Assembly: GCA_018260755.1 (NCBI GenBank)
Contig: JAGTWP010000016.1
Coordinates: forward strand, 1-16,372
Direction: 5' to 3'
From: Candidatus Altarchaeum sp.
GTDB lineage: Archaea > Altiarchaeota > Altiarchaeia > Altiarchaeales > Altiarchaeaceae
Length of the DNA: 16,372 bases
Notes under the pieces: generated by a model
Database searches by the model: none
Seen by the model: only the letters and a program-made list of their open reading frames with translations
What the model was told of the DNA's origin: nothing
Program-made: the position numbers and the translations under genes
Shown here: positions 8,939 through 12,065 of the stretch, piece by piece
How positions within the stretch are numbered: the first letter of the stretch is position 1
How the letters are laid out: each line of letters begins with the position of its first letter

Positions 8939-10069
8939 TTATTCGCTAACCCTGTATCTTAATATCGCTCCGACTCCTCCGAATGTATGTTCAAGCTGAA
9001 AGCCCTCTTCAAATGTCGTTGGCAGTAATTCAACCCTTGTTTTACTTTTCTTTGCAATTTCATAAAGCCGGTCAATTTCTTGAGCACCTATTTCTTCGGA
9101 TAAAAGTAAAATATCCACGGCACTCATTTCCAAATGCCTTTTTGCTTCCTCTCCGTAACTTACTGGCTCTGCATCTTTAACTAATCCGAGCATAAATCTT
9201 GCCATAATTTGTTGTTGTCTGACCATCTGCACTTCCTTCAAATCATCTTTGGACACCTGTATTAATTCCCTGATTCCCGATTCATCGGTATAGCTTATAT
9301 CTTTTATTGCAGTTATTTTCTTTTTTAACTCATGATTCATTCCTCCTTCCTCTATAAATTCAAGTTTTGTCGCACCGGGACCACCTATAATTATACCTTT
9401 TAGTTCCTTTAACATAGGCATGAAAATTTGTGTTGCGGAGTCCCCTATATACTTTTTAAAATTATGACTTTGCTCCTCAATTAACCGTTCGTATCTTCTT
9501 GCAGATTGTCCTCCGGCTCTGTGTTTTCCATGATATCCTGATTCCTTTTTCTTCAAAATAGTATAATGATCCCCTTTTAGAACACCAATTGTTGCTTCGT
9601 TATTATCAATAGCTATCAGTCCGTAAACATCCCGGACAGAGACCATATCTTCCAATGGCTGAGTTATAAATTGCTGATCACATCTGTAAAGTTTTATTGT
9701 TAATGGCTGCGGCGGTTCCAAACTCCATATTTTTATATCAGGGATACTTTCAACCTCGGATGTATTCCCGCAAAAAACAATGAGTCCGTGCGGAGGTGTT
9801 TTCTTGAATAATTTTAAATGCTGGGCTGTTTTTTCAAGTGCATCTGTAACATTTTTCCTATTAACCCTTGATTTAATATTCTCCGCTGTAAATTGTTCCT
9901 GCTGTATTTGCTGTAATGCCTGGATTATACTATACCCGCTTGGGATATAAAATGAGACCAAAGCAGTATGCTGCCCTCTTGTTTTTTTTAATGTCTGCAA
10001 TAACTTTTTTATACGATAAATTTCCACTTCTTTTTCTTCTTCCTCAATATCTTCATCGGCACCTCTCAT
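8939..10069 (-). CDS. prf1: Peptide chain release factor aRF1
   Basis: This class I release factor recognises all three stop codons and triggers peptidyl-tRNA hydrolysis. Domain 1 has TAENIKS (61-67, canonical TASNIKS) and YRCDQQF (128-134, YxCxxxF). Domain 2 carries the catalytic loop GKHRAGGQSARR with GGQ at 186-188. Domain 3 runs to the family-typical ending FGGVGAILRY. At 376 residues it is shorter than the roughly 410 residues usual in archaea. The shortfall appears to be in domain 3: the segment between LLLSEEIG and the following helix lacks the cysteine-containing minidomain seen in many aRF1 proteins. It is the last gene of the HMG-CoA synthase-pheT-prf1 unit, starting 12 bp after the pheT stop, with no strong ribosome binding site. 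Confidence 0.93.
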   Translation of the reverse strand: MRGADEDIEEEEKEVEIYRIKKLLQTLKKTRGQHTALVSFYIPSGYSIIQALQQIQQEQFTAENIKSRVNRKNVTDALEKTAQHLKLFKKTPPHGLIVFCGNTSEVESIPDIKIWSLEPPQPLTIKLYRCDQQFITQPLEDMVSVRDVYGLIAIDNNEATIGVLKGDHYTILKKKESGYHGKHRAGGQSARRYERLIEEQSHNFKKYIGDSATQIFMPMLKELKGIIIGGPGATKLEFIEEGGMNHELKKKITAIKDISYTDESGIRELIQVSKDDLKEVQMVRQQQIMARFMLGLVKDAEPVSYGEEAKRHLEMSAVDILLLSEEIGAQEIDRLYEIAKKSKTRVELLPTTFEEGFQLEHTFGGVGAILRYRVSE

Positions 10070-10081
10070 CTTTAACTTTAA

Positions 10082-10993
10082 TCATTCAATAATTTTTTGA
10101 GCATTCAATAACTTATTAAGTATATTTAAATTTATTTCAAAAGCAGTGACCGGAACTTCAATACCGAAATTTTCTATAACAAACGGAGAAATTTCCCCGA
10201 AAAAGCCGGCATCGGCATCCTTGATTAAAATTTTTGCCGCCCTTCCGTTTATGAAAAACGGCTTTTCTGTTTCTGAAATTTTCACATTGCTGCTGTCTGT
10301 AATACCAAACAAAATACCCTCAACGATAGCTTTTATTTCGGAAAAATTTGTTTTTGTGCCCGCAATTACTCCGCTGATTTTTAAGATCTCCTGAAAATTT
10401 TGAGCATCTGTTTTTTCAACACAATGACCTATTTCAAAAATTCTTTGTGGATATCCTTTTGTTTTGTTTATCTCAAGGAATGACATTAATGAAGGGAGCA
10501 GATAATTCCTTACAACATCGTGTTCTGTTGATAACGCATTTTCCGTTTCAACGACATCCTGTGCATTCTCAACATTCTCCGCTTCAATAAAAATATTCAT
10601 CCGTTTAAATAAATTTTCTCTGTTTGTAAGGATTAAGGACATTGTTTCCTGAAAATTTAAGCCGAGCATTAAATTTATAAGTTTGTTGCAAAATTTCCGG
10701 AATTTATCCTCCTGTCCGATTGTCCAGATTTTTGGAATTTCGGGAATAAAATTTTCATAACCGTAAGCAATCGCTATATCCTCTGCAATATCCATCTCAT
10801 GCAATATATCGGTTCTATAAGGAGGAACAAATACATTTAAGCGGTTTTTGTTAATGAGATCTGAATTCATTCCTGCTTTTAGCAGTAAATTTTGAATTTC
10901 ATAAATATTAAATTTCATTCCGAGGATTTTATTGACATAAGAAATACTAACCTCAATTGCATTGGTTTGCATAATTTGGGATGTGCTTTTCAT
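10082..10993 (-). CDS. pheT: Phenylalanyl-tRNA synthetase beta subunit, C-terminal half only
   Basis: This protein corresponds to the B5 domain plus the catalytic-like core of PheRS beta, which pairs with PheS to charge tRNA-Phe. The B5 domain (about 12-88) starts IEVSISYVNKILG and has VPPYRTDILHEMDIAEDIA (56-74). The core has the family pattern ending PQRIFEIGH (182-190), and the C-terminus looks complete. It has only 303 residues, against about 550 in archaea: the N-terminal tRNA-contact and B3/B4 editing domains are absent. The start is well supported, because a Shine-Dalgarno sequence (GAAAGGAG, complement of 10999-11006) sits 5 nt before the ATG, the clearest one in this window. Only 19 bp separate it from the HMG-CoA synthase stop, so the missing half is not upstream. 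It may be split, editing-deficient or a second copy. Confidence 0.88.
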   Translation of the reverse strand: MKSTSQIMQTNAIEVSISYVNKILGMKFNIYEIQNLLLKAGMNSDLINKNRLNVFVPPYRTDILHEMDIAEDIAIAYGYENFIPEIPKIWTIGQEDKFRKFCNKLINLMLGLNFQETMSLILTNRENLFKRMNIFIEAENVENAQDVVETENALSTEHDVVRNYLLPSLMSFLEINKTKGYPQRIFEIGHCVEKTDAQNFQEILKISGVIAGTKTNFSEIKAIVEGILFGITDSSNVKISETEKPFFINGRAAKILIKDADAGFFGEISPFVIENFGIEVPVTAFEINLNILNKLLNAQKIIE

Positions 10994-10998
10994 TTTTA

Positions 10999-11006
10999 CT
11001 CCTTTC
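10999..11006 (-). promoter_or_regulatory. Shine-Dalgarno site of the short pheT
   Basis: On the minus strand the sequence GAAAGGAG is followed by a 5-nt spacer and the ATG at 10993. Most other starts in the window lack such a site. It shows that translation of the half-length protein begins here rather than the gene being a simple 5' truncation. Confidence 0.75.
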
Positions 11007-11012
11007 TTTTTA

Positions 11013-12065
11013 CTATTTTCTCAAATGTATTCCTTTGATTTTTCCTTTGAATTTGGCATAAATTGCATAATCAATGTATTCTTTATTATCAATGTATTTT
11101 TTTATTGGATTGGGATTTCGTCTTAGTTCATTCTCTTTTGTAACCTTAATAATAAACGCATCACTTCCCGCTCCGCTGCCAAAAGATGTTGCAAGAATTA
11201 AATCACCTTCATTCGCATAATCCATAACATTTGCCAGACCAAGAGGTGTCGCTCCGGAATAAGTATTTCCGATATAAGGCGTAAGCAAGCCCAACTCAAC
11301 CTGTTCTTTTTTAAAATTTAATTTTTTGGCGACTTCAAGCGGAAATTTTCCGTTCGGCTGATGAAAAACAACATACTTAAAATCATCCGGTTTTAAATTA
11401 TTTCTTTCCATAATTGTTCCTGCTGCCGATGATACATGTCTGAAATATGCAGGCGCTCCGGTAAATCTTCCGCCGTGGCTCGGAAATTCCGCACCTTCTC
11501 GCCTCCAGAAATCAGGCGTGTCTGTTGTAAATGAATAAGTATCTAAAATTTCAGCAATTAAATTTTTTGTTCCTATTATAAACGCTGCCCCTCCTGCCGA
11601 TGCAGTATATTCTAATGCATCTCCGGGTCTTCCCTGTGAAGTATCCGTGCCTATTGCCATTCCGTATTTTATCATTTCTGACTTTACTAACCCCATACAT
11701 ATCTGAATTCCCGCTGTTCCTGCCTTACATGCAAATTCAAGGTCAGCTGCCATTAAATTTGGTGTTGCCATTATTGCTTCCGCAACGATTGTAGATGTCG
11801 GTTTAACAGCATAAGGATGTGATTCCGAACCAATATATAATGCACCTATTTCCTGCGGATTAATATTAGCATGCAGAATTGCATTTCTTGCCGCTTCAAC
11901 TGCAATTGTTGCCGCATCCTCATCCATTCCCGGAACCGACTTTTCATGAACATTCAAGCTCGCTGACATTCTCTTTCCATCTTCTCCCCACACTCTGGCT
12001 ATTTCTTCTGCTTTTATCCTGAATCTTGGAATATAACCTCCATAACCAACAATTCCAACTGGCAT
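11013..12065 (-). CDS. mvaS: Hydroxymethylglutaryl-CoA synthase, archaeal type
   Basis: This enzyme condenses acetyl-CoA with acetoacetyl-CoA to HMG-CoA, feeding the mevalonate route to isoprenoid membrane lipids. It has the thiolase fold with the N-terminal [15 protein letters not shown], a catalytic Glu81 in [12 protein letters not shown], nucleophile Cys113 in [11 protein letters not shown], and His235 in [10 protein letters not shown]. At 350 residues it has the normal archaeal length. In many archaea this gene sits with a thiolase and a DUF35 zinc-ribbon/OB protein that form a complex with it; neither is present here. Instead it heads a tight unit with pheT and prf1. The start has a TATA-like word at about 12090-12104 and no ribosome binding site. 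Further upstream lie 10-bp-period A/T repeats. Confidence 0.95.

What the first reader, a model, noticed from the sequence alone, without database searches (positions are those of the whole stretch)
10082..10993. Half-length PheRS beta subunit lacking the editing half, with its own ribosome binding site
The gene begins at the B5 domain and keeps the full core, but lacks about 250 N-terminal residues including the B3/B4 editing domain. A strong GAAAGGAG at the right spacing marks the start, and mvaS occupies the upstream DNA, so this is not an assembly edge. The N-terminal half may be encoded elsewhere (a split pheT), or this archaeon may have lost Phe-tRNA proofreading, or the protein may be a paralogue.
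Basis: partly seen in the sequence, partly recalled or inferred. Interest (0 to 1): 0.75.

Follow-up and report, generated by a model that had tools for sequence, protein, structure and literature searches.

The report
Split PheRS beta subunit in Altiarchaeota
This gene is the back half of an essential enzyme subunit that charges tRNA with phenylalanine; in this archaeal phylum the front, proofreading half is a separate gene elsewhere in the genome, an oddity first published in 2016 that here proves to be a single ancient, stably kept gene split.

Summary
It encodes B5 plus the catalytic-like module of an archaeal PheRS beta subunit and lacks B1 and B3/B4. The same genome has one separate gene for B1+B3/4 (C50:23379-24188), one pheS, and no second pheT. 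The genome belongs to Altiarchaeota. In 28 of 29 genomes held from this phylum pheT occurs only as halves, 22 showing both. On two large contigs the halves lie 355 and 450 kb apart. The editing-pocket residues tested are kept, both halves are under purifying selection, and neither end has room for an intein. The likely enzyme is therefore a three-polypeptide PheRS assembled non-covalently with proofreading intact. Bird et al. 2016 (PMC4975002) already described this split as an Altiarchaeales synapomorphy. Added here: phylum-wide sampling, same-contig placement of the halves, a conserved C-half/prf1 gene pair, the exact junction, and one Altiarchaeota genome (G004) with an unsplit pheT lying outside the split clade. 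These point to one fission after that lineage diverged. Assembly of the halves is inferred, not shown.

The parts
10082..10993 (-). pheT-C: C-terminal half of archaeal PheRS beta (B5 + catalytic-like module), 303 aa, own ATG
   Evidence: AlphaFold2 model mean pLDDT 89.5, best PDB matches are PheRS beta chains
10994..11012 (-). 19-bp spacer after mvaS, carrying GAAAGGAG five bases before the start codon
   Evidence: not conserved in congeners
8939..10069 (-). prf1 (archaeal release factor aRF1), next gene downstream; C half followed by prf1 on the same strand in 18 of 21 Altiarchaeota C-half loci
11013..12065 (-). mvaS (archaeal HMG-CoA synthase), upstream neighbour, shared by the three congeners but not seen upstream in the other families

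Best explanation
The gene encodes the C-terminal half (B5 plus CLM) of an archaeal-type PheRS beta subunit whose N-terminal half (B1 + B3/4 editing domain) is an independent gene elsewhere in the genome. An ancestral full-length pheT broke once, in the short linker between B3/4 and B5, after the lineage of genome G004 had separated from the other Altiarchaeota. The two pieces came to lie far apart, and no re-fusion or loss of either was seen (SHOWN by comparison). The two polypeptides and PheS most likely assemble non-covalently into a three-chain PheRS, (alpha, betaN, betaC)2. PheS with betaC would form the charging core and betaN would supply Tyr-tRNA(Phe) proofreading (INFERRED from domain content, conserved editing residues, purifying selection and lack of any splicing element).
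For: One B3/4 gene, one N half, one C half and one pheS in the window's genome. 28 of 29 phylum genomes have only half-genes, 22 with both halves; the six with one half are 70-81% complete. Same-contig placement rules out assembly artefact: G012 (single 1.39-Mb contig) 355 kb apart, G010 450 kb apart. The N half aligns over its whole length with residues 1-267 of P. horikoshii PheRS beta (2CXI) and the C half starts matching it at 274, so only the linker is lost. Editing-pocket positions by P. horikoshii number: N217 19/19, S211 19/19, T236 19/19, R137 19/19, A141 A 16/S 3, D234 E 15/D 4; N217 and A141 are named as key in PMC3275996 and PMC4263187. dN/dS 0.14-0.25 for both halves. The split clade excludes unsplit G004: 100/100 in the careful pheS+aEF-2 tree, SH-aLRT 99 and 95 in the larger species and pheT trees. 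The 60 non-Altiarchaeota loci among the best 80 have full-length genes or run off a contig end. Bird et al. 2016 independently found the split and support by mapped reads.
Against: No data show that the halves are co-expressed or bind each other. pLDDT falls below 50 at residues 1-5 of the C half, so nothing about the junction is resolved. dN/dS of the C half (0.18-0.25) is a little above that of pheS (0.10-0.17). In the pheT-only tree, one test that nests G004 among the split genomes (all but the two congeners) is not rejected (p-AU 0.097). G004's place within the phylum is weak in the marker trees: 47% SH-aLRT, with another outgroup at 81/90.
Confidence: 0.9

Rival explanations
1. The N half works as a free-standing trans-editing factor (as AlaX or YbaK do for other tRNAs) rather than as a stable PheRS subunit; PheS and betaC alone charge tRNA(Phe).
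For: Separate genes at unlinked loci with different neighbours; all tested editing residues kept in the N half; a trans-editor needs no covalent link.
Against: The N half retains the whole B1 region and the complete N-terminal stretch of the normal subunit, not a pared-down editing domain. The heterotetramer is conserved in known PheRS (review).
Confidence: 0.1
2. The two halves are joined post-translationally (split intein) or at the RNA level (trans-splicing) into a normal full-length beta subunit.
For: Bird et al. 2016 wrote that the split protein 'recombines post-translationally' without naming a mechanism.
Against: N halves end within about 0-15 residues of the last conserved beta-strand motif and most C halves start 0-5 residues before the conserved (T)PDL motif; each half has its own start and stop codon. 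A split intein would need roughly 100 and 35 extra residues (general knowledge); none is there.
Confidence: 0.03
3. Loss of Phe-tRNA proofreading: the editing half is gone.
For: The C half by itself lacks B1 and B3/4.
Against: A B3/4 gene with the editing-pocket residues is in the same genome and across the phylum.
Confidence: 0.02
4. Decayed duplicate, paralogue or assembly artefact.
For: Draft genome of 78 contigs, 85% complete.
Against: No full-length pheT in the genome; purifying selection; same split in 28 of 29 genomes, two of them with both halves on one large contig.
Confidence: 0.01

Closest known systems
Split pheT of Altiarchaeales (Bird et al. 2016, Front Microbiol 7:1221, PMC4975002)
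   Same: Same gene, same split site just before B5, two non-adjacent loci, same lineage; G012 is the IMC4 genome used there and G026 is WOR_SM1_SCG (contig titles).
   Different: They had six genomes plus one SAG and could not place the halves relative to each other. Here: 29 genomes, two with both halves on one contig, the unsplit G004, the prf1 linkage and a residue-level junction.
Archaeal/eukaryotic (alpha-beta)2 PheRS (2CXI, 3L4G)
   Same: Domain content and order of the two halves put together.
   Different: Beta subunit is one polypeptide there, two here.
Aquifex aeolicus split LeuRS and Nanoarchaeota split AlaRS (precedents cited in PMC4975002)
   Same: An aminoacyl-tRNA synthetase chain encoded in two pieces.
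   Different: Different enzymes and split sites; here a subunit of an already multi-subunit enzyme is cut exactly between editing and core modules.

Membership tests
Archaeal PheRS beta subunit (TIGR00471 pheT_arch) | B5 and CLM domains | tested here: met
   Pfam PF03484 and PF17759 above cut-off; TIGR00471 positions 275-549, 257 bits
Archaeal PheRS beta subunit (TIGR00471 pheT_arch) | B1 and B3/4 in the same polypeptide | tested here: not met
   Absent from the window gene, which stays under the 282.65-bit family cut-off; present in the C50 gene, TIGR00471 1-269, 307.6 bits
Archaeal PheRS beta subunit (TIGR00471 pheT_arch) | Editing pocket residues of archaeal/eukaryal B3/4 | tested here: met
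   N217, A141, S211, T236, R137 and D/E234 conserved in the N halves
Altiarchaeales split pheT (Bird et al. 2016) | Split just before B5 with halves at non-adjacent loci, in an Altiarchaeales genome | tested here: met
Three-polypeptide PheRS holoenzyme | PheS, betaN and betaC form one complex | not testable with these tools
   No multi-chain folding or biochemistry available
Split-intein protein | Intein fragments at the broken ends | tested here: not met
   No extra sequence at the ends of either half

The most novel reading that the evidence does not exclude
The separately encoded editing half is not a fixed subunit but an exchangeable module, so Altiarchaeota tune Phe-tRNA proofreading independently of charging, the first PheRS with detachable editing.
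Probability: 0.1. Interest if true: 0.65.

Novelty: already known. Interest (0 to 1): 0.35.

Why it matters
A near-universal enzyme subunit has been carried in two unlinked pieces by almost a whole archaeal phylum. The unsplit G004 gene gives an outgroup that dates the fission to one branch and makes the before/after comparison testable. It is a natural case for how an essential multidomain protein survives being cut at a domain border, and a warning that annotation pipelines score each half as a fragment or a duplication.

Tried and rejected
Plus-strand reading of the given coordinates: 18 stops. Second full-length pheT in the genome: none. Split intein or trans-splicing: no extra sequence at the junction. 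Fissions outside Altiarchaeota: none among the 60 other loci of the best 80, though L104, L111 and L142 run off their contig's 5' end. First literature search missed the prior report; it was found through 'pheT + split gene'. The 2024 archaeal fusion/fission survey does not name Altiarchaeota or tRNA synthetases in its main text. The Sasaki 2006 editing-residue list is from memory; only N217 and A141 were confirmed in held papers.

Full report
WHAT IS THERE. The gene is on the minus strand, 10993 to 10082, 303 aa. It holds the B5 domain (residues 13-79) and the catalytic-like module of PheRS beta (86-289), without B3/4. Against TIGR00471 it aligns from model position 275 of 551. An AlphaFold2 model is confident (mean pLDDT 89.5), and its best solved matches are PheRS beta chains (Plasmodium 7BY6, human 3L4G). 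GAAAGGAG lies five bases before the ATG, but the three congeners lack it. mvaS ends 19 bp upstream and prf1 begins 12 bp downstream.

THE OTHER HALF. The window is contig C49 of an assembly of 1.32 Mb, 78 contigs, 85% complete. It holds exactly one B3/4 match and one N-half gene, C50:23379-24188, matching TIGR00471 1-269 at 307.6 bits. It also holds one pheS, C77:10417-11397. The protein search finds no second copy of the C half. The N half aligns over its whole length with P. horikoshii PheRS beta 1-267 (2CXI) and the C half from residue 274. Only a linker of several residues is missing.

WHO HAS IT. Record titles of the relatives name the lineage as Altiarchaeota (Altarchaeum, Altiarchaeales). 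Of 29 genomes held for the phylum, 28 have only half-genes. By my count from that table 22 show both halves; the other six (G016, G018, G019, G021, G022, G025) are 70-81% complete and show one. In G012 (single contig of 1.39 Mb) the halves are at 384,853-385,728 and 740,534-741,328. In G010 both are on contig C3, at 81,757 and 531,659. In the best 80 loci of the genome collection all half-genes are Altiarchaeota; the other archaea have frames of about 535-600 aa (one of 795), or run off a contig end.

ONE FISSION. G004, placed in the same class by the collection, has an unsplit pheT (C62:5299-6900, 555 bits). In trees of pheS plus aEF-2, and of pheT itself, the split genomes group together without G004. 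SH-aLRT is 99 and 95 in the larger trees. Ultrafast bootstrap/SH-aLRT is 100/100 in the careful marker tree and 89/87 in the careful pheT tree, where G004 plus the split genomes are set apart from the outgroups at 97/96. An alternative nesting G004 inside the split group is not rejected on pheT alone (p-AU 0.097). G004's exact place is uncertain in the marker trees (47%; beside G039 at 81/90), partly because its aEF-2 is a 213-aa fragment. The simplest reading is one fission after G004's lineage left. In G004 pheS and pheT already lie on different contigs (C40, C62), so the pheS-pheT pair seen in many other archaea was probably broken before pheT itself was split (inference).

NEIGHBOURS. The C half is followed by prf1 on the same strand in 18 of 21 loci, across four families (f1, f3, f4, f5), once with two small genes between; exceptions are G026, G009 and G001. 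N halves often lie head-to-head with a trkH gene. The two halves share no neighbourhood.

STILL FUNCTIONAL. Both halves are under purifying selection in the window's genus: dN/dS 0.18-0.25 for the C half, 0.14-0.20 for the N half, 0.10-0.17 for pheS. Editing-pocket positions (P. horikoshii numbering) in the 19 N halves: N217, S211, T236, R137, L168 invariant; A141 A or S; D234 E or D. N217 is the residue that a review places where the bacterial catalytic-site histidine sits (PMC3275996); A141 is the pocket-entrance residue mutated in flies (PMC4263187). K52 of P. horikoshii is not conserved, but neither is it in unsplit archaeal genes. Proofreading capacity is therefore probably intact.

HOW IT WORKS. 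Shown: two genes, domain-exact split, conservation, no extra end sequences. Inferred: PheS, betaN and betaC assemble non-covalently as a three-chain version of the (alpha-beta)2 enzyme, betaN supplying editing. An intein is excluded by lack of space at the ends. A freely acting trans-editing betaN is the main surviving rival (about 10%).

WHAT IS KNOWN. Bird et al. 2016 (PMC4975002) reported this split as a synapomorphy of Altiarchaeales, just before B5, with support from mapped reads and several assemblers. They could not place the halves because they were on different contigs. The finding is therefore already known; the additions here are incremental but useful.

Noticed in passing
window:14817-16298 (-): Secreted-looking protein with NosD/right-handed beta-helix repeats (residues 213-338) and, before them, a CPHC thioredoxin-like stretch (residues 116-157, Pfam PF00085 E 2e-4, just under cut-off): an odd combination.
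   Followed up: partly
window:7225-8256 (+): DUF1464 protein (Pfam E 2e-71), weakly similar to methanogenesis marker 12.
   Followed up: no
window:8939-10993 (-): pheT-C followed by prf1 is conserved across most Altiarchaeota (18 of 21 loci): a Phe-charging subunit linked to the release factor gene for no known reason.
   Followed up: partly
L040:4902-5770: In G003 two 111-aa genes of one family sit between pheT-C and prf1; a 353-aa relative lies beside pheT-C in G001 (L052), suggesting a mobile or expanding family.
   Followed up: no
genome G051 (another archaeal phylum): A 99%-complete genome shows no pheS or pheT above weak class II background hits; probably an assembly gap, as the two genes are adjacent in its relative G029, but unchecked.
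   Followed up: no
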